Shown one piece after another: positions 36,399 to 54,630 of a stretch of 64,000 bases of DNA (its first letter is position 1; each line of letters begins with the position of its first letter). Made by a program: the position numbers and the translations under genes. Under the pieces are notes generated by a model, which did not search any database, was not told the origin of the DNA, and worked only from the letters and a program-made list of their open reading frames with translations. Source of the DNA: Verrucomicrobia bacterium S94 (GTDB taxonomy: Bacteria > Verrucomicrobiota > Kiritimatiellia > Kiritimatiellales > Pontiellaceae); contig CP036201.1 of the NCBI GenBank assembly GCA_004299845.1, positions 1,302,001-1,366,000 of the forward strand, given 5' to 3'.

Positions 36399-38408
36399 CT
36401 ATTCCCCATTGTTCATCCAGATCAGGTCATCCCGGTATTCACTTTCAAAATACGGCTGATATTTATAATCAAGCCCCGGCGTTTTCGGATTCCGGAAACG
36501 ATAGTTCAGATTGAAATACTTCAGATCCTTCAAATGATCGAGATAATGCTCCAGTAACAACTCAATATGCCACGTTCTCGCCGTTTCGTCGTGATCGTAC
36601 CATCCCTCGAACCGCCCCCAGCCGGATTGCTCAATCCATTCCTCCGCCTTCAACGCTTCACGCACATGCAGCAAAGCCTGATAGGCATCCAGCTGGGCCT
36701 TATGCCACTCCTTATTAAGATAATGTTCAAGCGATGCCGTAAAATCAACGGCCATCCCCGTCAGATGGCGCATTTTCAGCGTGGGATACACCAGATCCGC
36801 TTCATAGAAATCCAGCACATTACCGCTCAGGAAACGCCGGCAGTCATAAGCCCGTTCCAGTGCAACCTCCCAACGGCCTTCCGATGAACTAAAAAGATCC
36901 GGTCTCATCAGTTTCCGGTCCACCTCGTTCTGATAGGCGGCGTTGAGCATCTGCTCCACATAGTAGAAAAAATATTCATCCCCGGAGTTTTTCCGATCCT
37001 CCGAAAAGACGAATTGGCTCTCAAAAAAATCGCGATACGAATCAGCAACCGCAGAAACCTTTGCTCCCAGCACACGCTCCGCATACCAGTCAAAATACCA
37101 GTCGCCGTTTTCACAGGACTTAAAATCCTCAAACCGATTCATGTAATTCACCATCTGGCGAATGCCGAATATCTTCTCCTTGAAATTCCCCACATTCAGC
37201 ACAATCGCATTGGTCATTCCATATTCAACCGCACGGCCCATTTCACGTTGGAATGTATCCGGATGAATCGCATTAATACGCATATGCGTTTTTCGGTTGT
37301 GATACGAAACATGCTGATAGATTCCCATCTTCAGATCGCACTTTCCCGCCAGTTTCCAGTTCCAGTCGCCCATCACACCGTGCCCTGAATCGGAAAACAG
37401 CAGTATCGTATCCTCAGGATATTCCAGCAAACCGGAACTGTACAGCCGGCTCAACTCGCCCCACAGATAGCCGCAGATCACCGGATGCTCTTCGCCGGTA
37501 AGCTCCTTCAGCAGTTCATACTGCGTGCGGATCACATCATTCACCACCCGGGCTTTCTCTTCCATCGAACTCTCGCGTGACATCGTCGGATCATCATCCC
37601 AGAACGCACGATCCAGCAGTCCGCGGAAATTCAGCGTCCATATGACTTTTTTCCCCTTCTGCCGCTTAATCGCATCTGACCAGAAATCAATAAAATGCTC
37701 CCGGTGCGTCGACCACGAATAAGGAATATTCTTCGGCCAATATAACGGCACACTGCCCAGCGGTTCCGCATGGTGCTGGTTGATATAAAGACCCATATCC
37801 GAAGCAAGTACCAGATGCGGCTCATCCGGCAGAAGCAGTGTCGATGGAATCACTCCGGTCATTTTCAGACGAAGCATGGTTTCAAAAAGTTTTTCCATGA
37901 ACTCCATGTTCATCCCATACGACTGCTTCTCCATACGAAAACCGATAATCAGGTCTTCGTCATTCACAAACATCGCACGATGTTTAAAGGTATACGGCTT
38001 CGACTCCGTCACCCCGTTCGGAACATCCAGAGATCGAACCCGCTCCGGGACAATCCCCGTAAAATAAATGCACGGATCAATCCCCAGCACCTCTTCCGAA
38101 AACGAATAAATTCCGTGAATCAGACCCAGCTCATCCGACCCCGTAATAACAACACCCGAATCCGACACCTCAATGCGGTGCCGGTCAGATACCTTCCAGT
38201 TCTCGGAAATCCGGAATGTAAAACGGGCCGCAGCCACTCCCCGAGCCGGGAACCCGAATTTCCGCTGCAGATCTTTTTCAAATGCCTTTACCGCATAAAC
38301 CACAGCCTCCGAGCCGGACTCATCGCGAAGCTCCACATTCGCAGTAAGCGTCAGCCCGAAAACCTGCGATGCCGCAAGCATTCCAAGAACCGGAAGAATC
38401 TTTTTCAT
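36399..38408 (-). CDS. GH115-like glycosidase
   Basis: Exported 669-residue protein resembling GH115, a family of alpha-glucuronidases acting on (methyl)glucuronoxylan side chains. After a signal peptide comes the small alpha/beta domain common to GH20/GH115 proteins (DSGVVITGSDELGLIHGIYSFSEEVLGIDP), then DEPHLVLASDMGLYINQHHAEPLG, YSWSTHREHFIDFW and VIWTLNFRGLLDRAFW. It is shorter than characterised GH115 enzymes, lacking their C-terminal beta domain, so the specificity may differ. Its ATG overlaps the stop of the sulfatase gene (ATGA), implying coupling and a shared sulfated, uronic-acid-containing substrate (inference). Confidence 0.65.
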   Translation of the reverse strand: MKKILPVLGMLAASQVFGLTLTANVELRDESGSEAVVYAVKAFEKDLQRKFGFPARGVAAARFTFRISENWKVSDRHRIEVSDSGVVITGSDELGLIHGIYSFSEEVLGIDPCIYFTGIVPERVRSLDVPNGVTESKPYTFKHRAMFVNDEDLIIGFRMEKQSYGMNMEFMEKLFETMLRLKMTGVIPSTLLLPDEPHLVLASDMGLYINQHHAEPLGSVPLYWPKNIPYSWSTHREHFIDFWSDAIKRQKGKKVIWTLNFRGLLDRAFWDDDPTMSRESSMEEKARVVNDVIRTQYELLKELTGEEHPVICGYLWGELSRLYSSGLLEYPEDTILLFSDSGHGVMGDWNWKLAGKCDLKMGIYQHVSYHNRKTHMRINAIHPDTFQREMGRAVEYGMTNAIVLNVGNFKEKIFGIRQMVNYMNRFEDFKSCENGDWYFDWYAERVLGAKVSAVADSYRDFFESQFVFSEDRKNSGDEYFFYYVEQMLNAAYQNEVDRKLMRPDLFSSSEGRWEVALERAYDCRRFLSGNVLDFYEADLVYPTLKMRHLTGMAVDFTASLEHYLNKEWHKAQLDAYQALLHVREALKAEEWIEQSGWGRFEGWYDHDETARTWHIELLLEHYLDHLKDLKYFNLNYRFRNPKTPGLDYKYQPYFESEYRDDLIWMNNGE

Positions 38409-39777
38409 CGGACGTTTCTCTGATTTTCGTAAAGTTCCTTCTGGTGTTTCTTATGGTCCGGATAATCCCAGAACTGATAGCGAATATTATCCTTATTCCA
38501 TTCATCCCAGTCCTGCTGAAGCTGGTTCACCATCTCAGCCTGCTCCGGAGAATGATACAGATCGTTCTGTTCGCCGGCATCCTTCCCCAGGTTAAAGAAT
38601 TCTTTCACATCATTCGTCCAGTCGGCCTTCACCAGCTTTCTGCCGTCTTTATGAATAATGGCCCAGGCGGCTCCGTCACGGCGGCGAAAATAAATATTTT
38701 CATGCGGCGCATCCGTTTGTTCTCCTGTCATAAACGGAAATAGATTTTCTCCCTCCATATTCCCTTTTTCCACACCCGCCAGTGCCGCAATAGTCGGAGC
38801 AATATCAATTGAGATCACCGGCCAGGTAAACGTAGAACCGGCCGGAAGTTTGCCGGGCCAGTACGCCACAAACGGTACATGTATACCACCTTCATAAACC
38901 GCACCTTTGCCATCGCGGAACGGACCGTTGTCTGTCACCCGTCCCGGTTGCGGACCGCCATTATCACTCAGGAAAAAGACCAGTGTATTCTTCTGCAGCC
39001 CCTGCGATTCCAGCGCATGCAGAACCCGCCCGATCCCCTTGTCCATTTCAGTCACCATCGCCGCATAAATCTGCCGCTGTTTGTTTTCAATATGGGAAAA
39101 CTTTGCAACCGCTTCTTTCGGGCCTGCCATGGTGCATGCGGTGCATTGTAGGCTAGATACAGAAAAAACGGATCATCCTTGCTCTGCTCAATAAACTTCA
39201 GGGCCTGCTCCGTCAGCTGATCCGTCAGATAGCCTTCCACATTGGCGAATTTTTTATTATCAATCAGCGGCAGTTTATAGCTGTCCGCCAGATCAAGGGA
39301 ATTCACCTCAAAATAATCATGTCCACCGCCCGGAATGCCGAAAAAGAAATCAAAACCGCGATTCAACGGATGCTGCACCTTACTCATCCCCAGGTGCCAT
39401 TTGCCCACCAAACCAGTTTTATATCCCGCCTTTTTAAGCCGCGTGGCAATCGTGGTCTCCGAAGCCGGCAATCCCGATTTTTCATCCAGCGGCGCATAAG
39501 CCGGATTCGTCTCGAAACCGAAACGCTGCTGATAACGCCCCGTCATCAATCCCGCCCGCGTCGGCGCACAGAATGAATGGCTGGCATAGCCGTTTTCAAA
39601 ACGAACCCCTTCACTCGCCAGCCGGTCGATATTCGGCGTCCGGAAATCCGTACAGCCGTTAAAACTAACATCCGCAAACCCCAGATCATCCGCCAGAATC
39701 AGAACAATATTGGGTTTCTCAGCCGCAAAACATGAAGCCGCAGCCAATCCCAGCAATACAGCTGTTTTTCTCATCAT
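38405..39777 (-). CDS. Type I sulfatase (one frame break)
   Basis: Exported formylglycine-dependent sulfatase of about 457 residues. Signal peptide MMRKTAVLLGLAAASCFAA, NIVLILADDLGFADVSFNG, modification motif CAPTRAGLMTG (Cys near residue 70), GLVGKWHLGM, and after the break FFLSDNGGPQPG and PFVAYWPGKLPAG. Residues ...YNAPHAPWQA and PKEAVAKFSHIENKQ are in different frames; adding one base in the three-G run at 39120-39122 (plus strand) joins them exactly as in intact relatives. Probably a functional gene with a sequence error. GGAG precedes the ATG at 39777. Followed by the GH115-like gene with four-base overlap. Confidence 0.85.
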
Positions 39778-39819
39778 TTTCTCCATTCGTGTCCTATCTT
39801 TCCACATTAATACGCGCCT

Positions 39820-41939: not shown

Positions 41940-42057
41940 ACAACAACTCCTCCATGAGAACCTAAACATTTAGATAAAGAACGCTGCCGAAGCAAGAAAA
42001 GGACACATTAGATGCATGATAACGCGTTTTTTGATCAGAAAAACCGAAGAATAAAAC

Positions 42058-42086
42058 AGGAGATTTCCTATACCGGAAAATCTCCT
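42058..42086 (-). terminator. Terminator after the PKD-domain gene
   Basis: Minus strand hairpin with arms AGGAGATTTTCC (42086-42075) and GGAAATCTCCT (42068-42058), one bulge, followed by GTTTTATT. It lies about 25 bases past the stop of the 42109-44135 gene. Confidence 0.7.
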
Positions 42087-42108
42087 CTCTGTTTTTGAAA
42101 CCTGTTGC

Positions 42109-44135
42109 TTACAGTTGCTCTACAACAATGCGCAGGTATCGCTGTTCCGGCGAATCGCTCCCGGCCCGGAATCGGTACTGGATCAGGTCATGTTCCGGTT
42201 TTTCCGGAAGGTCGTTGGTGAACATGCCATCCGCAAGCAGTGGAACCCATACATCTTCTGTAATGTCGGTGCAGACTTCAACCATGTACTGCATACCGAA
42301 TCGTTCAGAACCTTTCAACTGCGGCACAAACAGATGGCCGTTTCCATCGGCAGTAAAATCCAGATAGAAAAGACCGGTGTCTGCCGGATTGGTGGGATTC
42401 GACCCCAAGGCAAATTCAAGGAAATTTTCCTGTCCGTCGCCGTCATCGTCACCCTCCATACCGCCCGTCAGACCGTATTGCGCCTCAAAGTTCGAAAAGG
42501 CATCCGCAACCGGCAGATTCACGGTCACGGAATTGACCTGAAAGGCATTAAGCCCGGAATTGTTGGCGGCCGGATTGATTCGCTGAAAAAACAGATAGGC
42601 TCCCGAGCCGGCCAGGGCATTGTACACATCGGTACCGATTCCCGCGTAATCGACTCCCGACACTCTATAACCGGATACCGTACCGGTTCCTGTGTCCGTG
42701 CCGTCAGTCAGGTTCTGCAGCCGCACAGTATAGAAAGTGTCAGCCGCTGTAGAACCCATGGTGAGTTCATAATCAAGTTGCATCCGGTCGCCACCGTCCG
42801 GATCGCCGCTGGAAACAGAACCCGCACCGGAAGGTATCGCATAATTATTGAGAAGCCGGTATTTCCCGTCAGTCTGCAGCTGAACATTCACGTCCGGCTC
42901 ATGTCCGCCGGTGGACACACTCCCGGACGAGGCATCGGCTTTCAGTCCGGAGAGCACCGTATAGACAAAACCGGTGGGAACAGCATAGGTTCCGCTGAAT
43001 TCAAAATCCATGCTGTAGGCAAACGTCTCTCCCGGTGCCAGCCTGATCGGAAGGTTCAGCACCGCCAGGCTGTTGTTTGCCGTGGTGACAGCAGAGCCGC
43101 CGTCGTTCGTATTCACAATCCAGCCGTCTTCGGCGTTCCATCCCACCTGACCGTCAAGTTCACCATTGGCAAATCCGCCATCGGCCTCGAACCCTATTAT
43201 CGAAATATGAACAACCTCCACTGTAACCTCGTCATAAGCGGTATTGTTTTCGTCGTCCATGACGGTCAGACGGAAAACATAGGAACCCTGCACCAGCCCG
43301 GCGCCGGAAAGCACAGCGCTCGACGCGCCGGAAAGCACAGCGGTGTTAGGCCCCGATTGCTGGGTCCAGCTGTAGGTGGAAATCGTGCCGTCATCCGTAG
43401 CACTGCCGGTCAGAGTCACCTGATTTTCCGGCAGATTGATCACCTGATCCGTACCGGCATTCACAAAAGGTCCACCGAAAAGAATCGATTCCGGCTGATT
43501 TACAAATACGGAATCGTTGGGCCAGTTACCCAGATCACTGTGGGCAAACATAATGCGATCCAGATTGAATTGATTCGAACGCCCTGAAACCGTGAAAGTA
43601 TAAATCCCCCCGCTTTGAATTCATAATAAACCGGCACATGGTCGGCACCAGGTGCATCCATATTGGTTGCACGCGACCACTCCGTTGCACTGCCGCCATA
43701 GAGCTTGGAATCGGTCAGCAACGCACTCAGCGCAACATCGTCTGAACCGCTTTGAAAATCTCCCTCCATTCGAACAAAACAGTCGTTGTGCTGATCACTC
43801 CCGTCCCCCGGATTCAACCGTTTGTGGGCACGCAGAAATACCCGGTAAACCCCGGCCTTGTTGATTTTAAAGGTATAGACCAGCGGTGAAGACGGAACGC
43901 CCCATCCGTCGGGCCCATACCGCTTATATTCCAGATGTCCTGTACCGGTGGCTCCGGCCGGATATCCGGCTGCACCGACAGTATAAAAATCCCATCCATC
44001 GTACGGTGATTCAGTATTTTCCGCCTCCATAATAACGAGGCCGTTGGCTTCGTTATAAATCCGTTCTGCAAAACTGCTGACCGTTATCAGCAGTGAAGTA
44101 CCGCATATGCACAGCCATGTTACTTTTTCCATCAT
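42109..44135 (-). CDS. Exported CBM-like/PKD modular protein (one frame break)
   Basis: Exported protein of about 676 residues. Signal peptide; CBM6/malectin-like module (NGLVIMEAENTESPYDGWDF ... VYRVFLRAHKRLNPGD ... FKAGG(I)YTFTVSGRSNQF); PKD-like domain (NAGTDQVINLPENQVTLTGS); an about 190-residue beta domain; and a calcium-binding-like repeat (DDDGDGQENFLEFALGSNPT) with a beta tail. Codons before and after the six-G run at 43606-43611 are in different frames; one more G restores the module. No catalytic motif is seen. A promoter matching that of the ECF sigma gene precedes it, so it is the best candidate target of that sigma factor. Confidence 0.78.
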
Positions 44136-44147
44136 TGTCCTCCTTAT

Positions 44148-44174
44148 TATAGGTCCCTCACTTGACGACCTATA
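44148..44174. promoter_or_regulatory. Inverted repeat TATAGGTC/GACCTATA
   Basis: Perfect 8-base arms (44148-44155 and 44167-44174) separated by 11 bases, just before the 44135 start. The distal arm overlaps the -10-like part of the sigma-type promoter, so it may be an operator or a 5'-leader hairpin. Confidence 0.4.
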
Positions 44175-44203
44175 TGCAGGAGCTATATCGATATTAGGCA
44201 GAA
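44167..44203 (-). promoter_or_regulatory. ECF-type promoter of the 42109-44135 gene
   Basis: Minus strand TTCTGCCTAAT (44203-44193), 17-base spacer, ATATAGGTC (44175-44167). The same two blocks with the same spacing occur before the ECF sigma gene at 48321-48357, while the spacers differ. The -10-like block ends in GTC, common in ECF promoters. Confidence 0.65.
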
Positions 44204-44207
44204 TAAA

Positions 44208-46496
44208 TTATCTGTTGTTACGTCGGATCAGGACAACCCAGTCGGACGTCGGTTTTGACGGGGCCTCACCCAGCGAAACAGAGGAACCGCCGCTCACAGT
44301 TGCTATACTGCCGCGGACCAAATCCCCACCGTTTATCGGATCAAACCAATAGACTTCATACGCACCGTTCATCTGCTTCAGATTCAGCGAAGCACGGCCT
44401 CCTTCCGGCAGATAGACGACAAACACGTTTTTCCCATCCGACAGACAGTGTCCGGTTCCGCCGGAGAGCAGTTCATCGTGATTTTTCATGGTCCAGAACG
44501 GGATATGCTGATCCTGGAAAAATTCATTAACGGCAATATCCGACCAACGGAGCAGCTTCTCGAAATGGGCGTAGTTATCCAGCCTGAGATCAGAACCGCC
44601 GGAATAGTATTCCACCCCTCCGCCGCCGGCCATGAGGTTGCCCCACAACACATTTTTTCGGCTCAGTTCAAAACTCTGGTTCACGCCCAGATTCCCCGGC
44701 CCCTGCTCATCGCACGCCACGACCCACGGCCGGCCGGCTTCAGCTGAACGATCAACCCACAGCTTTGTTTCATTAAAAACATTTTCCGTATCAACGGCTT
44801 CCGGGGTCTGAAGCGAAATACCGGTCAACTCTGAGGCCCCGAGATGCGGAGCGTAAAATTTACTTTTATCCTTCGAAGGCCCCGTATGAAAAACACGGGG
44901 ATGCTGCCACGGATCAATCTTTTCCATATACTTCAGCCATTCCGTCCGCGTTTCCGCCCCGACCGGAATCTCTTCCGACATATTCCAGTTCAGTGCCAGA
45001 TGATGACCGAACCGGGCAACCATTTCCCGATAGAAGAGCTTACGCTCCGGTCCCAGCTGCCCGCCATCAAGATCGCGCGCATTTTCCAGTTCCATCAATT
45101 TAAAATGCAGGTGAAGTCCCTTTTTCTCCGCATGGTCAAAAACCCGTTCCCACTGCGCCAGTTTGGAGCAGTCAAAACGCAACCGTTCATTTTTATCCAC
45201 ATACGGAAAAACGCGGTCGCCATCACCGGGACCGGAATAGGGACGTTTACCGTTGTTCGGATCAGGGACCAGCCGACCGACATTATTGAGCAGCATCGAA
45301 ACCGAATTCGCTCCGGTACCCGAAATATAATTCAACGCACCGTATATATTTTTTCCCTTGCCGTTCCCCCACAGTTCACCGTCGCCGTTATAGTGTTTCG
45401 CGTGTGAGGCGAAGGTATGGCGAATGCCCTTGTTTCCTTTTTCGGGGGTATTGTCGAATTCATAATATTCGAGAAAATTTTCCGGCGAATCAGGACCGAA
45501 TTTCAGAAAATATTTTCCGCTGCCCTCAAACTGAAGGTGGTGTTTTCCAACATAGCGCAATCGGCCTTCTGCCCTTAGATCCGGTGCTTCTGCCGGGTTG
45601 TCTCCGGAAATCTCAAATGAACCGGAGATTCCATTATACAGGTCCAGCGCATATCCCTTTCCCCCCGTCGCCACCTGATGCCCCTGAATAAATGAAACCT
45701 CATAATTCCAGACTCCGGAAACATCCGGTCGAAAATGACAGAACCATAAACTTCCCGAATCAGCGCCACTGTCTGCGGCATTTCCATCCGCCGCGAAATA
45801 ACCGGGAACCACCATCGTTTTTCCGGATACCGGATGGGTAAACCTGACATCCATCCGGTAGTCCGTAAACGGATTCGGTATTGCCCGTTCCGATGAAAAC
45901 GGACCGTTAAGTTTAAGGGTGATCTTATGCCAAAGAAACCGTTCTCCATAAATTTCAACTGAAGCGGTCTGAGTGCCGACCGGTGTAAACGCCACAGACG
46001 TCCAGCGTCCACGGGCGTAGGCCGTGCTGTCTCCTTCCGGAACCCTACCGTTTGTCACGCAGTCCGACTCCACCGCAATCGTTGCACCGTCCGGAATTTC
46101 AACTTTCCGGAAGCAATGTTTCTGTGGCGCATAATCTACATCGGTTTCCGCATTCTGCACCGTACCGATAATCTTTCCATTCACCAGAAACCGATAGGTG
46201 CACTCCCCGTCCAGCTCGCGCAGTGTTGTCAAAATAACATCATATGTTCCGCCCGCCTCAGCGAACGGAGTTTCGGCCCGTGCAAACCGGTTTCGGAACT
46301 TCGGGTTCCCCGCATTGATGGCCAGTGCCTTTTTCCACTTATGCACATAATACGGCACTTCGCCGGCTTCCGTTTTTGAAAAATCCGCAATCGCGGAATA
46401 CACCACAGTATCGGCGTTTTCTTCGGCAAAACCGGCATAGCCGGGAAGAAATACGGCGATGATGCATGACCATTTCACAAATTGTTTCCGCTTCAT
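44208..46496 (-). CDS. DUF5060-domain glycoside hydrolase-like protein
   Basis: Exported 762-residue protein. After a signal peptide come two beta-sandwich modules, the second a DUF5060-like domain (VEIYGERFLWHKITLKLNGP ... NPFTDYRMDVRFTHP), then a TIM-barrel-like catalytic part (LRYVGKHHLQFEGSGKYFLK, HLHFKLMELENARDLDGGQL, HLALNWNMSEEIPVGAETR, WVVACDEQGPG) and a C-terminal beta domain (GRASLNLKQMNGAYEVYWFD). The conserved Glu residues in NMSEEI and CDEQG are candidate catalytic acids (inference). Substrate unknown. Its ATG overlaps the FecR stop (ATGA), so it is coupled to the ECF/FecR pair. Confidence 0.75.
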   Translation of the reverse strand: MKRKQFVKWSCIIAVFLPGYAGFAEENADTVVYSAIADFSKTEAGEVPYYVHKWKKALAINAGNPKFRNRFARAETPFAEAGGTYDVILTTLRELDGECTYRFLVNGKIIGTVQNAETDVDYAPQKHCFRKVEIPDGATIAVESDCVTNGRVPEGDSTAYARGRWTSVAFTPVGTQTASVEIYGERFLWHKITLKLNGPFSSERAIPNPFTDYRMDVRFTHPVSGKTMVVPGYFAADGNAADSGADSGSLWFCHFRPDVSGVWNYEVSFIQGHQVATGGKGYALDLYNGISGSFEISGDNPAEAPDLRAEGRLRYVGKHHLQFEGSGKYFLKFGPDSPENFLEYYEFDNTPEKGNKGIRHTFASHAKHYNGDGELWGNGKGKNIYGALNYISGTGANSVSMLLNNVGRLVPDPNNGKRPYSGPGDGDRVFPYVDKNERLRFDCSKLAQWERVFDHAEKKGLHLHFKLMELENARDLDGGQLGPERKLFYREMVARFGHHLALNWNMSEEIPVGAETRTEWLKYMEKIDPWQHPRVFHTGPSKDKSKFYAPHLGASELTGISLQTPEAVDTENVFNETKLWVDRSAEAGRPWVVACDEQGPGNLGVNQSFELSRKNVLWGNLMAGGGGVEYYSGGSDLRLDNYAHFEKLLRWSDIAVNEFFQDQHIPFWTMKNHDELLSGGTGHCLSDGKNVFVVYLPEGGRASLNLKQMNGAYEVYWFDPINGGDLVRGSIATVSGGSSVSLGEAPSKPTSDWVVLIRRNNR

Positions 46497-47770
46497 TGAT
46501 GCTCCATTGGTTTCATTTTCAAAATCAGTTCCGGCGCTTCACCGGCTTCAGTGGATCCCATCCAGATATCATCGCCCCACAGTTTATCGAGGGTGACTAC
46601 CCACGTATTCAGCCCTGCCCTCAGATCCCTCGGGTTAATTTCAAATTCCAGAAATTCACCCAGGTCGATTTTTCCCCGAAATTCAGAAATCTGTTTCTCC
46701 AGCCGGTCCAATGCATTTTCCGGCGTTGATCCCGGAGATGCAGCATGCAGACGGACCACCCCTCCACCACCGTCGGGCCGGCGACTGGAAACCTGCAGCC
46801 GCAGACGGGCCTGCGCAATCCGCTCCGGCGCTTCAGCCACATCAAATTTAAGGAAAACCTGGTGATTCCGCTTCGGATCAATATGCAGGATATTGTGGTT
46901 ATCCAGACCGATATTATCATCCTGCACCGGCAGCAGTACCCGGTGCAAAACGCGCCCGCCCTTTTCAGTTATACTTCGGCTGTCGGTAACCATGCCGGCT
47001 CCCACTTCCACACTCTGATCGTCGGAGCGGGTTGCAAACCGAACCCTCCCCTCCTGCACTGACAGGCGGGTAAACTGATCCACCAAAACCTCAAATGAAG
47101 TTCCCAGCACCACGACCTCGGCATCGTGCGTCGTAATTTTCATCGGCATCCCGGGCTTCTGCTTATCCACGTCTGCATGCAGATGACCTGATGTAAGGTG
47201 AATCCGCTTAGCACCGTCCTGATCCGAAACCGCGAACAGCGATCCGCCGGCTATGAAAATGAACGTCCGCTCACCGATATAACTGAACATGAGCGATCCG
47301 CCCACGGGAACCACAATCCGGTCACCGGTATATACCGGATCACCGTACCCGAGAGCGCGCACCTCGCCCTGATTTATCGCAGAAACAGAGCCCCCTCCGG
47401 CCGGAAGAGCAAGCTCAACCACCGTGGCCACCGGCTGATAGTCTATGCTTCCGTCAGAAACAAAATTATTAATCCGCGTGTGCTGCGCCAGATAGATTCC
47501 GGAAAAGGTCAGCAACAGGGCCGCAGCTGCGGCAATACGGCGCACCTTCTGTACCCGTGTTTTCCGGACCGGAAACAGAATGGTTTTCGCTTTCCGATAC
47601 GCCTGATAATCGCTCATAAGCCACTCATCGCGGGCGGTCTCGATAAAATAATTTCCAAGCTGCGGATCATTCCGAAGTGCTGTTTGCAGCTCCTCAAGTT
47701 CTTCCTCGCTCAAATCACGTAGAAAATATTCGGCCGCCAGATTTTTCAGATAATCCTCCGTATTGGCCAT
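46493..47770 (-). CDS. FecR-type anti-sigma protein with DNRLRE-like C-terminal domain
   Basis: Membrane regulator of 425 residues that would hold the ECF sigma factor inactive. Residues 1-75 are cytoplasmic and helical (LSEEELEELQTALRNDPQLG), a transmembrane helix lies at about 78-95, and a FecR domain at about 140-250 (GYGDPVYTGDRIVVPVGGSL, LTSGHLHADV, VVLGTSFEVLVD, LSVQEGRVRF). Residues about 278-419 resemble the DNRLRE/CBM96-type beta-sandwich (NHQVFLKFDVAEAPERIAQA, RLRLQV, W-D-DIWMGSTEAGEAPELIL). That would put a carbohydrate-binding domain directly on the anti-sigma factor (inference). Its ATG shares one base with the sigma stop (TGATG). Confidence 0.82.
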   Translation of the reverse strand: MANTEDYLKNLAAEYFLRDLSEEELEELQTALRNDPQLGNYFIETARDEWLMSDYQAYRKAKTILFPVRKTRVQKVRRIAAAAALLLTFSGIYLAQHTRINNFVSDGSIDYQPVATVVELALPAGGGSVSAINQGEVRALGYGDPVYTGDRIVVPVGGSLMFSYIGERTFIFIAGGSLFAVSDQDGAKRIHLTSGHLHADVDKQKPGMPMKITTHDAEVVVLGTSFEVLVDQFTRLSVQEGRVRFATRSDDQSVEVGAGMVTDSRSITEKGGRVLHRVLLPVQDDNIGLDNHNILHIDPKRNHQVFLKFDVAEAPERIAQARLRLQVSSRRPDGGGGVVRLHAASPGSTPENALDRLEKQISEFRGKIDLGEFLEFEINPRDLRAGLNTWVVTLDKLWGDDIWMGSTEAGEAPELILKMKPMEHQ

Positions 47771-48300
47771 CAGAACACCTCAGGACGCTGCAGCTGGAAT
47801 TCAATGCACTTTCGCAGTTCGGCCTTCAGCCGCTTCAATAAGGAATAAATACTCTGCACCGATTTACCCAGCGCCACGGCAATCTGCGTGCAATTGCAGT
47901 TATCAACATATTTCAGCTCAACAATCCGCCGCTGTTTTGCCGGCAGTTTCTGCATACACCTGTCGAGTGCATCCCGGCGCGGCGTCATCTGCTCAGCACT
48001 GAACACCGCCATTTTCGGGAGATATTCATCGATCACCTCGAAACTGATATGCCGTGCATCCCGTCGGTTTTTCTGATACCATTGCTTAATCTGGTTTTTG
48101 GTGATGCCCATAATCCAGGGCAGCGCCGGACGCTCCCCGTCAAACGTCGCTCCGGCCTGTGCGATTTTGATCGCCACGGACTGCAACACCTCTTCACTTC
48201 CGTGATAGCTGCGCGTTGAAGCGAAAACATACCCCCGCAGATTTCCGTGGTTTTCATAAAAAACGGTCAGCAGATTTTCAATCTTTTCCGAATCGGTCAT
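47770..48300 (-). CDS. ECF RNA polymerase sigma factor
   Basis: Sigma-70 family ECF factor of 176 residues of the Planctomycetes/Verrucomicrobia type. Region 2 is visible in NLRGYVFASTRSYHGSEEVL ... PWIMGITKNQIKQWYQKN, and region 4 helix-turn-helix in LPAKQRRIVELKYVDNCNCT ... IAVALGKSVQSIYSLLKRLK. It is first gene of the string sigma, FecR, DUF5060 protein. AAAGGAA precedes the ATG, and an ECF-type promoter lies 20 bases upstream, suggesting autoregulation. Confidence 0.92.
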   Translation of the reverse strand: MTDSEKIENLLTVFYENHGNLRGYVFASTRSYHGSEEVLQSVAIKIAQAGATFDGERPALPWIMGITKNQIKQWYQKNRRDARHISFEVIDEYLPKMAVFSAEQMTPRRDALDRCMQKLPAKQRRIVELKYVDNCNCTQIAVALGKSVQSIYSLLKRLKAELRKCIEFQLQRPEVF

Positions 48301-48320
48301 TTACGGATTCCTTTAAATAT

Positions 48321-48357
48321 GACCTACATACGGTGCAGTCTTCCGGATTAGGCAGAA
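48321..48357 (-). promoter_or_regulatory. ECF-type promoter of the sigma/FecR operon
   Basis: Minus strand TTCTGCCTAAT (48357-48347), 17-base spacer, ATGTAGGTC (48329-48321), then AAAGGAA and the sigma ATG 20 bases on. The same pair of blocks at identical spacing precedes the 44135 gene, which supports recognition by this sigma factor. Confidence 0.65.
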
Positions 48358-48399
48358 AAAATAAACTTCCACGCCTCGGTCCACCATCCCGGTATATAC

Positions 48400-48441
48400 A
48401 AAAAACCTGTTCTGACGTCACACACGGACGAAAAAACAGGT
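48400..48441 (-). terminator. Terminator after the KAP-like ATPase gene
   Basis: Minus strand ACCTGTT (48441-48435) pairs with AACAGGT (48411-48405), with an inner CGTC/GACG pairing, followed by a run of six T. It isolates the dynamin/KAP pair from the sigma operon. Confidence 0.75.
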
Positions 48442-48478
48442 CGTTTAACCATTCTTATTTATCCGGCCGGAACCGGCA

Positions 48479-49965
48479 TCAGGCAGGCTGAAGGCCCCGT
48501 TGCATATCGTTAAGGCGCCGAGCCTGATTCTTAGCTACCTGCGAAAGCGTAAGGCGCGGAATCTTCCACAGCGGCTCTTCGTTCGGCGTATAGGAACAAT
48601 GTTCGTGTACAACCTGATAGAGCAGTTTAAAGGCATCGCGAGGCTGCTGCATTTGTCCCAGCGCATCAAGTACATCCTGAAGCGATACATCTTCATCAAA
48701 GAAATCACTCAGCACCGGCGCATCCGCGTTATTATCGCAGCACGCTTTAAGGCGCATGTTGGCGAGATCGTACAGAGCGGAGCCCGACCAGGCAAGGCGG
48801 TCAATCATGCACTGCTTATCAAGCCGCGCTTTCATATAGAAGTCTTCAGATTCCCGGTGAACAAGATAGCGCAGTTCAATCGGCAGCAGCAACTTGATGC
48901 CGATATGCTGCTGCTGGAGAAATTTGTTATTGAGCATCGGCCAGACCAGCTCCTTCATCTTCTGTGCATCACCATTGATCATGGCCGGCTCATCCACGCG
49001 ATCAACAAGAACCACCATTCCGCTGTAGCCGAACTCCCCGAGAATCGCCAGCAGGAACCGGTTGAGTTCATAGCGGCTGTCATGATCGCCGGGCATGGGC
49101 AGTGCTATTCCGGCCGTCCGGGTACGCCCGATCTTCCGCAACTTCCGGGCAAGTTCGCCGGTAACATGTCCAACCGTCCGGATTTCGCGGCGAAGGCGCG
49201 CCGCCAAAGTATGCGTCCGTAAAAATTCCACACCCTGCAGCAATACCAGCAGAAGCGCCCCCCCAGCCCGATGCCGCCGCCAGCCAGAGAAACCCAGCGA
49301 GGCAGTTCCAGCGTATCGCCGAAAAGCAGCAGCGTGGCACCGATCAGAGCAAACAAGGCCGCCGCAATCCATTCAGCAAACTGCATTGTGCCGATGCGTA
49401 CAAGTGCCCGAAGCCGTTCAAAACGCTGATCATTCAAACTGTTAGGCTGATCATACAATGCAGCAAGCAGACACAATCCCATCCGTTTACGGCGACTCAT
49501 GCGCTTTACGCTGCGCCGCATACCGCTGAATCCCGGCAGTTCCGGCCGCTCGCCCATGAGGGTATCCACCAGTTTGGTCACGGCAAGTGCAAGCATAGCA
49601 TCCTGATGATCTTCAAGCCGCATGTGCCGCAACGGATTCTCTTCTTTGAAACGGCTTGCAAAAGTATCCAGCGCGGCATTCTGATCGTCATACCGAACCA
49701 CCCAGACACGCTGATCTTCTGAATTTTCATTATGAAGCGCGTACTGCTTTTCCATCGTCAGGCGCAATGCCGTTTTTCCACTGCCCTTTTCTCCGAACAC
49801 AATGGCCGAGGAGGGATGCTCGGGGGTGCCGTAGATTTTGGCAAAATCAGGATGGGTGGATTCTTCCGAAAGTAATCGCAGAAACACCGGATCATCGGTC
49901 GCCTCTTCGGCGCTGAATGGATTTTCCAGTACGTTCCAGTGCCGCCAGAAATCAAAAACCCGCAT
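48479..49965 (-). CDS. KAP-like P-loop ATPase with membrane hairpin (one frame break)
   Basis: P-loop NTPase of about 495 residues. Walker A is GEKGSGKT (residues 58-65). Two hydrophobic helices follow near residues 195-216 and 222-245, and a Walker B-like MVVLVDRVDEP lies near residue 320. Transmembrane helices between Walker A and B are the hallmark of KAP NTPases, so I place it there. The frame changes inside the second helix, at a run of seven G (49258-49264); eight G give the continuous GGALLLVLLQGVEF. The start lies two bases after the dynamin gene stop, so the two proteins are made together and may act together at the inner membrane (inference). No specific function is known to me. Confidence 0.72.
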
Positions 49966-49967
49966 CG

Positions 49968-52130
49968 TTAACCCCTATCTTCTTCCGTCTCGTTATCTGT
50001 CTTTTCTGAATCGGAGGCACCGGTATCCGCCGCACCCGTATCCATGTTATTATCACCCGCCGAGTCGTTTGCAATCTCCGAATCATCTTCCGCAGACTCC
50101 TCCTGAACCTCCCCGGATTCCACCCCCTGCTGCGTCGAACCTTCCAGCGCCGTCTGCATCGCGGACAGACGGCCGTCAAAATCCTCAACTGCCGCCGCCA
50201 TTCCATCGGTCAGAGTCAGCATATGTTCAAGTTCAGCAATCTCTTTTTCCAGTTTTTCAAGTTCATCTGTGAGTGCCGTTTCATCCGCTTCGAGTTTCGA
50301 TAACACCGTATCCCGCAATGTTTCCGTATGCCGGTCCGCCAGCAGCTCCGCTTCTTTTTCCATGGCGTCCGCCAGACTGTTTTTCACGAAAGCCTGGACC
50401 TGAACAATCAGATATTCGCGGGCTTCATCCCCCAGACGGCGTTCCTTCTGCACAACGGGTATCGTCCGGCTGCCGTAGTCTCCGAACAGCTTTCTCCGGA
50501 TTCTCACAGGGCTGCGGAAAAACAGATAATCAAAAAAGCGGCGACGAACCGGTATCGTGGCCGGATCCAGCTCAAATTTTTTAATGGCAAACGCCTCTTC
50601 CGACCCCATATGCTGAACGGAATCACCACTGATTTCAGCCAGGTCAATCTCCAGCAACCGCAGTGCTTCGCGGGCACCGCTTTCCAGTTCCGCTCCGGCA
50701 AAAGCGCCGCCCAGATGGCGTTTCATAATCCGGCGGGCCTGTTCTCCAAGACGCTCAGCCTCGGCTTCTATCCTTTCGCCAAATCCCTTTTCGCCCAGCG
50801 TTTTCAAACTGTTTTCCGACTGAAACCATTCATCAAGCACTTTGCTGAGCCCACCGCGCAACTGTACAACAGCATCTCCGACCATCGTGCCGATTTCAGA
50901 AATCGTCATCCGTCGTGTTGCGGAAAAAACGGCATTCCAGTCGAGATCCGTTATACAGCGTACCGCTTCCCGTCGTTTCAGAAGTTCTTCACGTTTTTCC
51001 CGGTCGCCCTCGCAGGCCGACCGCAACCGTTCAATAGCCACTCCCGTAACCGCATCCCTCAGCTCTTTGGCCAGGATGCCGCCCTGATTGATACTGTCGC
51101 GGCGGAATTCAAACAGATAATCACTGCTGTTGAGATAATCACTGAGATCCGCAAGAAAATCATCAAAGGCCGAAGTGCCCTCTTCCGTATTTTCCTGACC
51201 GGATCCTAAACGCCCGGCAGCGGCACTGAGCAGATCAATCGGATAGATATTAAGCCGGCCTTCATCAAACGCTTTACGAAGCGGAGCCTCCATCGAGAGC
51301 GATTCAAACGCTTCCACCACACGCTGCGGTGCTTCGCTTTCAACACTGGGTCTCAGCGAACCGTCCGGCGCAAGATCCTTCTTGTTGCCGTCAATATTGA
51401 CAACCAGAAAAACCCGGCTGAAAATATCCAGCAGTTTGTTGAATTCAGCAAAAACCTGTTCCAGGAAAAGGTTTTCCGTTTTTACAACGAAAACCGCACA
51501 CGCAGCGGCATCACGGAAATCCCGCGTCATCAGGTCATAGCCGAACTTCATACGGGTGTACAGGCCGGGGGTATCCACCAGTACCACACCGGATTTGGCC
51601 AGATCGGCCGCCGGAAGGCTGATGTCAATCCGGCGCAATGCATCGGGATAATCGGTAGCGGGATCAAATGTCCGGCCGGCTTCCTCGGCTTTTTTCAATT
51701 CCTCGGCAAGTTCGCCATGCTTCGTATCCACCAGCTGCTCGAGCTCTTCGCGACTGCCGATTCCGCGGCACTGCCCTCCATAGGACGTGGTTGAAAACGC
51801 CTGCTGTTCTCCATCCCGGACATAAACCAGACACGGATAGGCCGGAAGACTGCTGACTTCGCTGACATAACTTCCGCTGATGGCATTCATCAAGGTTGAC
51901 TTACCGCTTTTCAGCGGACCGAAAATAATCAGATAGGCCTGTTGCGCCTCCAGTTTATCAACCAGAATCTTAAGGCGGTGCTGCACATCGGCCAGTTTCG
52001 GGCGGGCATCGCCGAGCATTTCTGCCCGGCCGGCATCATCCATTCTGGACAGTGATTCATCCAGAGTCCGCAGGAGCGGTGATGCGAATGCGGAATAGTC
52101 TACGCAAAAATCACGAAGTTCAGTTTTCAC
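49968..52130 (-). CDS. Bacterial dynamin-like GTPase
   Basis: Large GTPase of 720 residues expected to bind and reshape membranes. G1 is GPLKSGKST (71-79), G3 is DTPG (186-189), and G4 lies in VNIDGNKKD (about 244-252). A long helical region follows, with a basic/aromatic patch (RRFFDYLFFRSPVRIRRKLF) that could be the membrane-contact paddle, a coiled coil near residues 620-660, and an unusual Asp/Glu/Ser/Thr-rich tail of about 50 residues. It has no transmembrane helix. The start is a GTG at 52130 with AAGGA about ten bases upstream. It forms a two-gene unit with the KAP-like ATPase gene. Confidence 0.88.
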   Translation of the reverse strand: MKTELRDFCVDYSAFASPLLRTLDESLSRMDDAGRAEMLGDARPKLADVQHRLKILVDKLEAQQAYLIIFGPLKSGKSTLMNAISGSYVSEVSSLPAYPCLVYVRDGEQQAFSTTSYGGQCRGIGSREELEQLVDTKHGELAEELKKAEEAGRTFDPATDYPDALRRIDISLPAADLAKSGVVLVDTPGLYTRMKFGYDLMTRDFRDAAACAVFVVKTENLFLEQVFAEFNKLLDIFSRVFLVVNIDGNKKDLAPDGSLRPSVESEAPQRVVEAFESLSMEAPLRKAFDEGRLNIYPIDLLSAAAGRLGSGQENTEEGTSAFDDFLADLSDYLNSSDYLFEFRRDSINQGGILAKELRDAVTGVAIERLRSACEGDREKREELLKRREAVRCITDLDWNAVFSATRRMTISEIGTMVGDAVVQLRGGLSKVLDEWFQSENSLKTLGEKGFGERIEAEAERLGEQARRIMKRHLGGAFAGAELESGAREALRLLEIDLAEISGDSVQHMGSEEAFAIKKFELDPATIPVRRRFFDYLFFRSPVRIRRKLFGDYGSRTIPVVQKERRLGDEAREYLIVQVQAFVKNSLADAMEKEAELLADRHTETLRDTVLSKLEADETALTDELEKLEKEIAELEHMLTLTDGMAAAVEDFDGRLSAMQTALEGSTQQGVESGEVQEESAEDDSEIANDSAGDNNMDTGAADTGASDSEKTDNETEEDRG

Positions 52131-52180
52131 TTAAAAAAACATCCTTATTTTAAAGCCGGAATCGAGAATTTCATCCTGCA

Positions 52181-52196
52181 ACTATACCCGAAACAG
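52181..52196 (-). promoter_or_regulatory. Promoter-like element before the dynamin gene
   Basis: Minus strand CTGTTTCGGGTATAGT, about 50 bases before the GTG start. The -10-like TATAGT and the CTGTTyNGG block resemble the elements at 20493 and 36360. GGCTGTT occurs twice here, 14 bases apart. No good -35 is seen. Confidence 0.4.
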
Positions 52197-52287
52197 CCTA
52201 TCTTAACAGCCTCTGTTGTAAAGCCAAATGGCTGCAAATGGCGTTTTGATCATGTTAAAGCCCGTTTCAGCAGAATTTCGGCACAGC

Positions 52288-54630
<2,343 letters not shown>

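What the first reader, a model, noticed from the sequence alone, without database searches (positions are those of the whole stretch)
48400..52196. Self-contained dynamin-like GTPase plus KAP-like ATPase pair inside a catabolic region
Two genes, two bases apart, with their own promoter-like element and terminator. One encodes a soluble GTPase with a basic paddle and long acidic tail, the other a KAP-type ATPase with a membrane hairpin. KAP ATPases and bacterial dynamins are each linked in other settings to membrane remodelling or phage defence. Neither has an evident role in sugar use, so the pair could be an undescribed membrane-acting or defence module.
Basis: partly seen in the sequence, partly recalled or inferred. 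Interest (0 to 1): 0.7.

Follow-up and report, generated by a model that had tools for sequence, protein, structure and literature searches.

The report
Dynamin-like GTPase with membrane ATPase partner
Two bacterial genes form a small operon, one encoding a relative of the membrane-shaping dynamins and the other a membrane-anchored ATPase, and the same pairing recurs in a distant relative, so it is probably a rare membrane-maintenance partnership rather than part of the sugar-degrading genes around it.

Summary
Window 49968-52130(-) encodes a bacterial dynamin-like GTPase (Dynamin_N, BDLP/mitofusin-like model, conserved basic-aromatic paddle). The ATPase starts 2 nt downstream and is broken in the window at a C7 run. 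The nearest relative has one intact 495-aa ORF, and dN/dS is about 0.05 on both sides of the break, so the break is recent or an assembly indel; neighbouring genes are broken too.

The ATPase is not KAP by any test run. It is a remote relative of the anti-phage protein DS-41 and of Sll1717-type P-loop ATPases, with a two-helix membrane insert that the nearest DS-41-like protein examined lacks.

The pair recurs, same order and strand, in a distant lineage (G187; ATPase about 45% identical). It is rare: 3 of 18 ATPase genomes. Both genes usually stand alone, and each is universal in another bacterial family (ATPase 11/11 genomes, GTPase 4/4). No defence island, viral, plasmid or compositional sign was found.

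Most likely it is a membrane-maintenance operon. In some Verrucomicrobiota the same GTPase is followed instead by a second, hairpin-anchored dynamin-type GTPase, an analogous layout. A dedicated phage-defence role is possible but second choice. New variant of a known kind.

The parts
49968..52130 (-). dynamin-like GTPase, 720 aa, GTG start
   Evidence: ORF; Dynamin_N E 6e-11; 88-89% identical ORF in G027; AF2 model matches BDLP/IniA/mitofusin
51396..51929 (-). G domain (Dynamin_N match, residues 68-245; P-loop GPLKSGKST, DTPGLY, NID)
   Evidence: motifs invariant or nearly so in 26-sequence alignment
50481..50552 (-). paddle-like amphipathic basic segment PVRRRFFDYLFFRSPVRIRRKLFG (about residues 527-550), putative membrane-binding tip
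   Evidence: consensus PVxKxFWDWxLFRSQxxVRRxLFG in 25 of 25 relatives covering the region; membrane binding inferred
50115..50432 (-). long helix (residues 567-672)
   Evidence: AF2 model
49971..50120 (-). disordered acidic tail, 19 D/E and 2 K/R in 50 residues
49282..49965 (-). ATPase, N-terminal part in frame (residues 1-228): P-loop and first transmembrane helix
   Evidence: tblastn with intact G027 protein, 92% identity
49771..49794 (-). ATPase Walker A, GEKGSGKT
   Evidence: near-invariant in 10 homologues: all columns conserved but S62, which is T in one
49220..49386 (-). region of the transmembrane hairpin (about residues 194-249)
   Evidence: hydropathy in L002 and homologues
49258..49264 (.). 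C7 homopolymer where the window has one base fewer than G027; reading frame breaks here
48479..49228 (-). ATPase, C-terminal part in frame (residues 247-495)
   Evidence: NF053860 match E 3.4e-18
48989..49012 (-). ATPase Walker B-like VLVDRVDE
   Evidence: D-R-x-D-E invariant in 10 homologues
48397..48442 (-). terminator-like stem-loop with T-run after the ATPase
   Evidence: fold; stem kept in G027
52131..52287 (-). upstream intergenic region between GH95 and the GTPase, probable promoter/leader
   Evidence: 90% mean identity to G027 over the aligned stretch; no consensus promoter above chance

Best explanation
A two-gene membrane-maintenance operon. Shown: a soluble bacterial dynamin-like GTPase, with a conserved amphipathic basic paddle instead of transmembrane helices, is followed 2 nt downstream by a P-loop ATPase related to DS-41 and Sll1717 that carries a two-helix membrane hairpin between Walker A and Walker B. 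Inferred: the ATPase sits in the inner membrane as an ATP-switched anchor or sensor. On membrane distress it recruits the GTPase or licenses its assembly. The GTPase then binds lipid through its paddle and tethers, reshapes or reseals the membrane, using GTP hydrolysis to cycle off. The stress could be envelope stress, phage lysis or injection, or membrane load from heavy secretion. The same GTPase is followed in two Opitutae-type loci by a second dynamin-type GTPase, with its own two-helix hairpin where the gene is complete. The likely layout is therefore 'soluble dynamin plus hairpin-anchored P-loop partner', with the partner changed from a GTPase to an ATPase.
For: GTPase family: Dynamin_N; Foldseek best hits BDLP E 3e-14, IniA, the C. 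jejuni DLP pair, mitofusin. Paddle conserved in 25/25 and no TM helix. ATPase hairpin conserved in 10/10. Pair recurs in G187, same order and strand, 90-nt gap; genome co-occurrence Fisher p 3e-4 taking one genome per genus. Pair block with GH95 kept in G027 at 82% DNA identity, under purifying selection: dN/dS 0.10 GTPase, 0.05-0.06 ATPase. Alternative hairpin GTPase partner in L008, and truncated in L026. Most bacterial dynamins are operon pairs (PMC6104087); DynA-type proteins respond to membrane damage (PMC8844932). ATPase 11/11 in family f19 and GTPase 4/4 in f66 argue for maintenance roles.
Against: The pair is rare: 0 of 26 other GTPase genomes hold the ATPase, and 15 of 18 ATPase genomes lack the GTPase next door. 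Neither gene needs the other in general. The grouping of the three paired GTPases rests on long branches, and the ATPase tree does not group the paired ones. No physical interaction, localisation or activity was tested. The paddle function and the recruitment step are inferred.
Confidence: 0.5

Rival explanations
1. Dedicated anti-phage module: the membrane ATPase senses infection, as DS-41 may, and triggers the dynamin to seal or disrupt the membrane, delaying lysis or aborting infection.
For: All 10 ATPase homologues hit NF053860 DS41_1 anti-phage (best 8e-34); DS-41 is one of 42 systems validated in E. coli (PMC13092281). GTPase relatives hit PADLOC LeoBC/LeoA weakly. DynA delays phage lysis (PMC8844932). 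The GTPase was found in only 2 of 28 genomes of the window's genus, and the ATPase in no other genus member listed.
Against: The score is far below the DS41_1 cut-off (104.6 of 370 bits). The alignment stops about 90 positions before the end of that model, and the hairpin looks like an addition. The ATPase is universal in f19 (11/11) without a constant partner. No defence island, no viral or plasmid copies, ordinary composition.
Confidence: 0.27
2. Coincidental neighbours: two solitary genes landed next to each other in two lineages and share only a transcript.
For: Both are mostly solitary; the paired ATPases do not form a clade.
Against: Same order, strand and short gap in two lineages with about 45% ATPase identity; co-occurrence p 3e-4; 2-nt spacing kept between window and G027 under strong purifying selection.
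Confidence: 0.15
3. Auxiliary to polysaccharide use: the pair supports membrane traffic or vesicles needed for secreting or taking up algal glycans.
For: It sits between GH95 and porphyranase/FecR genes in the window and next to the same GH95 in G027.
Against: In G187 the pair neighbours RmuC, a BadF-type ATPase and an MMPL transporter, not glycan genes. Each gene elsewhere has varied neighbours.
Confidence: 0.05
4. Decaying pseudogene operon, with the ATPase truly broken in this strain.
For: Frame break at C7.
Against: dN/dS 0.05-0.06 on both sides of the break, and the frame stays open after it. Nearby genes show similar breaks against intact G027 copies, which fits assembly indels.
Confidence: 0.03

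Closest known systems
Bacterial dynamin-like proteins (BDLP1, IniA, C. jejuni DLP1/2, B. subtilis DynA)
   Same: Dynamin_N domain, helical stalk, tip paddle-like segment, operon pairing (PMC6104087)
   Different: The partner here is a P-loop ATPase, not a second dynamin; sequence identity to solved structures is only about 13-18%
DS-41 anti-phage protein (NF053860, DefensePredictor)
   Same: P-loop ATPase core and DRxDE-type Walker B region, model positions 4-356; E 6e-30 to 8e-34
   Different: Below the curated cut-off; has a transmembrane hairpin insert that the closest DS-41-like protein examined lacks; the last about 90 model positions, where that protein has a zinc-ribbon-like CxxC pair, are unmatched
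Sll1717-family P-loop ATPase (NF047389)
   Same: Weaker match over the same core in 10/10 homologues
   Different: Below cut-off (45.9 of 75 bits); no experimentally known function I could cite
KAP P-loop NTPases (PF07693)
   Same: From general knowledge: a membrane segment inserted within the P-loop domain
   Different: No sequence match in any of 10 homologues or in the genome
LeoA/LeoBC dynamins (PADLOC)
   Same: Dynamin-like; weak match to 15 of 26 GTPases
   Different: Different partner; E only 8.5e-6 for the window protein

Membership tests
Bacterial dynamin-like protein | Dynamin_N G domain with P-loop, switch II DTPG and G4 motif | tested here: met
   PF00350 E 6e-11, over cut-off; motifs conserved in 26 relatives
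Bacterial dynamin-like protein | helical neck/trunk packed as in BDLP or mitofusin | tested here: met
   Foldseek BDLP E 3e-14, IniA, C. jejuni DLPs, mitofusins; VIA Z 18.0 to mitofusin-1 over 362 residues with rmsd 9.2, so domain angles differ
Bacterial dynamin-like protein | lipid-binding tip (paddle) | tested here: inconclusive
   Conserved amphipathic basic segment; lipid binding not testable here
KAP NTPase (PF07693) | match to the KAP_NTPase family model | tested here: not met
   No match in 10 homologues at E up to 10; none in own genome with positive controls
KAP NTPase (PF07693) | transmembrane segments inserted in the P-loop domain | tested here: met
   Hydrophobic hairpin between Walker A and B in 10/10
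DS-41 anti-phage protein (NF053860) | full-length match over the equivalog cut-off | tested here: not met
   104.6 of 370 bits, positions 4-356 of 448
DS-41 anti-phage protein (NF053860) | protects against phage | not testable with these tools
   needs plaque assays
Paired dynamin operon | two dynamin-type GTPases side by side | tested here: not met
   the downstream gene is an ATPase; tandem GTPases occur instead in L008 and L026

The most novel reading that the evidence does not exclude
A previously undescribed two-component membrane machine in which a DS-41-related, hairpin-anchored ATPase acts as switch or receptor for a soluble dynamin, replacing the usual second dynamin, and serves as immunity or membrane repair in Verrucomicrobiota.
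Probability: 0.3. Interest if true: 0.7.

Novelty: new variant of a known kind. Interest (0 to 1): 0.42.

Why it matters
Bacterial dynamins usually work in pairs with a second dynamin. A recurrent operon in which the partner is a membrane-anchored ATPase related to a validated anti-phage protein would give a testable link between dynamin membrane repair and phage defence, and would suggest what a DS-41-type ATPase might act through. If the partnership proves incidental, the finding is an ordinary dynamin gene beside a poorly known ATPase.

Tried and rejected
KAP membership of the ATPase: rejected by family models with positive controls.

ATPase relatives in viral contigs, by single protein and by profile: none. 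In plasmids: none.

An apparent 600-aa partner upstream of, or fused to, the ATPase in L054 and L061: no Pfam match, glycine-rich with no P-loop, judged a spurious, probably antisense ORF.

Solved structures by sequence: only weak TnsC-like P-loop hits for the ATPase (E 0.06) and coiled-coil-type hits for the GTPase, not used.

Structure of the ATPase was not predicted.

GTPase tree: the paired GTPases form one clade at 95/93, but the branches are long and flagged as possibly false.

A literature search for 'DS41' found nothing useful; the system is 'DS-41' in PMC13092281.

Full report
What is there. On the minus strand, window 49968-52130 is a 720-codon GTG-initiated ORF, and the next gene starts with ATG at 49965, two bases after its stop. 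The second gene is split in the window into 49105-49965 and 48479-49372 in different frames. In the nearest relative, genome G027 of the same genus, it is a single 495-aa ORF two bases after the GTPase. The window has one base fewer than G027 at a C7 run, 49258-49264, one of only two G/C runs of seven or more in the 64 kb. The 5' and 3' halves both show dN/dS of 0.05-0.06 against G027, and the frame stays open after the break. The neighbouring GH95 gene is also broken, in three frames, and the genes near 39 kb and 42 kb show breaks too, while G027 has them whole. The break is therefore most likely an assembly indel, and at most a very recent mutation.

The GTPase. It matches Dynamin_N (PF00350, E 6e-11, above cut-off). 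An AlphaFold2 model built on 26 sequences (mean pLDDT 75.7, pTM 0.58) is closest in Foldseek to bacterial BDLP (E 3e-14), mycobacterial IniA, the Campylobacter DLP pair and mitofusins. VIA-align gives Z 18 to mitofusin-1 with a large rmsd, so the domain arrangement is uncertain. No member has a predicted transmembrane segment. A 50-residue tail with 19 acidic and 2 basic residues follows a long helix. That the segment binds lipid is an inference from the BDLP and Cj-DLP2 tips (PMC6104087).

The ATPase. It has Walker A GEKGSGKT, a DRxDE Walker B region and, between them, a two-helix hydrophobic hairpin present in all 10 homologues aligned. The KAP_NTPase model matches none of the 10 homologues even at E up to 10 and nothing in the genome, while ringing in 10 of 14 control genomes. 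The best named families are NF053860 DS41_1 anti-phage (E 6e-30 for the G027 protein, 8e-34 best; 104.6 bits against a cut-off of 370) and NF047389 Sll1717 P-loop ATPase. DS-41 is one of 42 systems validated in E. coli by DefensePredictor (PMC13092281); that NF053860 is named after that system is my inference from the name. The closest DS-41-like protein that I could read (L106, partial) has no hydrophobic hairpin and ends in a zinc-ribbon-like CxxC pair; the present family matches the model only to position 356 of 448. It is therefore a membrane-anchored remote relative, not a DS-41 equivalog.

Is the pair real elsewhere? In 387 genomes sampled from the phylum, the ATPase occurs in 12 and the full-length GTPase in 7 (counting only matches with E below 1e-90). 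Four genomes hold both; Fisher p is 1.8e-5, or 3.3e-4 taking one genome per genus. The two are adjacent, GTPase first, same strand, in the window, in G027 and in G187, a member of another family of the phylum, with a 90-nt gap there and 45% ATPase identity. Against this, none of 26 further GTPase-bearing genomes holds the ATPase, and 15 of 18 ATPase genomes have other neighbours. The pairing is recurrent but rare.

What each gene does alone. The ATPase is in 11 of 11 genomes of one family (f19, four genera), mostly as a solitary gene with varied neighbours. The GTPase is in 4 of 4 genomes of another family (f66) and is mostly solitary. In L008 the same GTPase is followed 47 nt downstream by a second dynamin-type GTPase that carries its own two-helix hairpin; L026 has the same neighbour, cut by the contig end. 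So a soluble paddle GTPase is followed, in different lineages, by a hairpin-anchored P-loop protein: an ATPase here, a GTPase there. This parallel is my main reason for preferring a membrane-remodelling partnership.

Local context. The window is a glycan-degradation region: GH95, GH3, porphyranase, ECF sigma factor and FecR. The GH95-GTPase-ATPase block is kept in G027 at 82% DNA identity, but window 42.0-48.5 kb (sigma/FecR and more) is missing there. The 157 nt upstream of the GTPase are 90% identical to G027, and the stem-loop with T-run after the ATPase is kept. Consensus promoters are not above chance. GC and GC3 are ordinary, and no PADLOC defence family was found among 37 window proteins other than one hit to a model named CARF/beta-galactosidase/LolE, which I read as a glycosidase or LolE-type protein. 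Plasmid and viral collections gave no relatives of the ATPase.

Interpretation. I favour a membrane-maintenance operon (0.5), with the ATPase as membrane-anchored switch and the GTPase as the membrane-acting arm; recruitment and lipid action are inferred. A dedicated phage-defence role (0.27) has support from DS-41 kinship and from DynA, which delays lysis (PMC8844932), but universal presence of each gene in whole families and the lack of any island or mobile signature weigh against it. Chance pairing (0.15) is disfavoured by recurrence and selection.

Noticed in passing
window 52288-54630 and 38405-39807: GH95 and a second gene are frame-broken in the window but intact in G027, suggesting several indel errors in this assembly.
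   Followed up: partly
window 42016-48479: About 6.4 kb with ECF sigma factor, FecR and DUF5060 genes lies between blocks that are nearly adjacent in G027.
   Followed up: no
L008:8271-9632 and L026:8196-9134: A dynamin-type GTPase with a two-helix hairpin directly follows the same soluble dynamin in two Opitutae-type genomes; a possible tandem dynamin pair (the L026 copy is cut off by the contig end).
   Followed up: partly
L038, G000:C1:12196-12552: A second, weak DS41_1-like match in the same genome, in a 466-aa ORF.
   Followed up: no
L058, L059, L103, L105: An SMC/RecN-like ATPase gene lies beside the solitary ATPase in four f19 genomes, divergently oriented.
   Followed up: no
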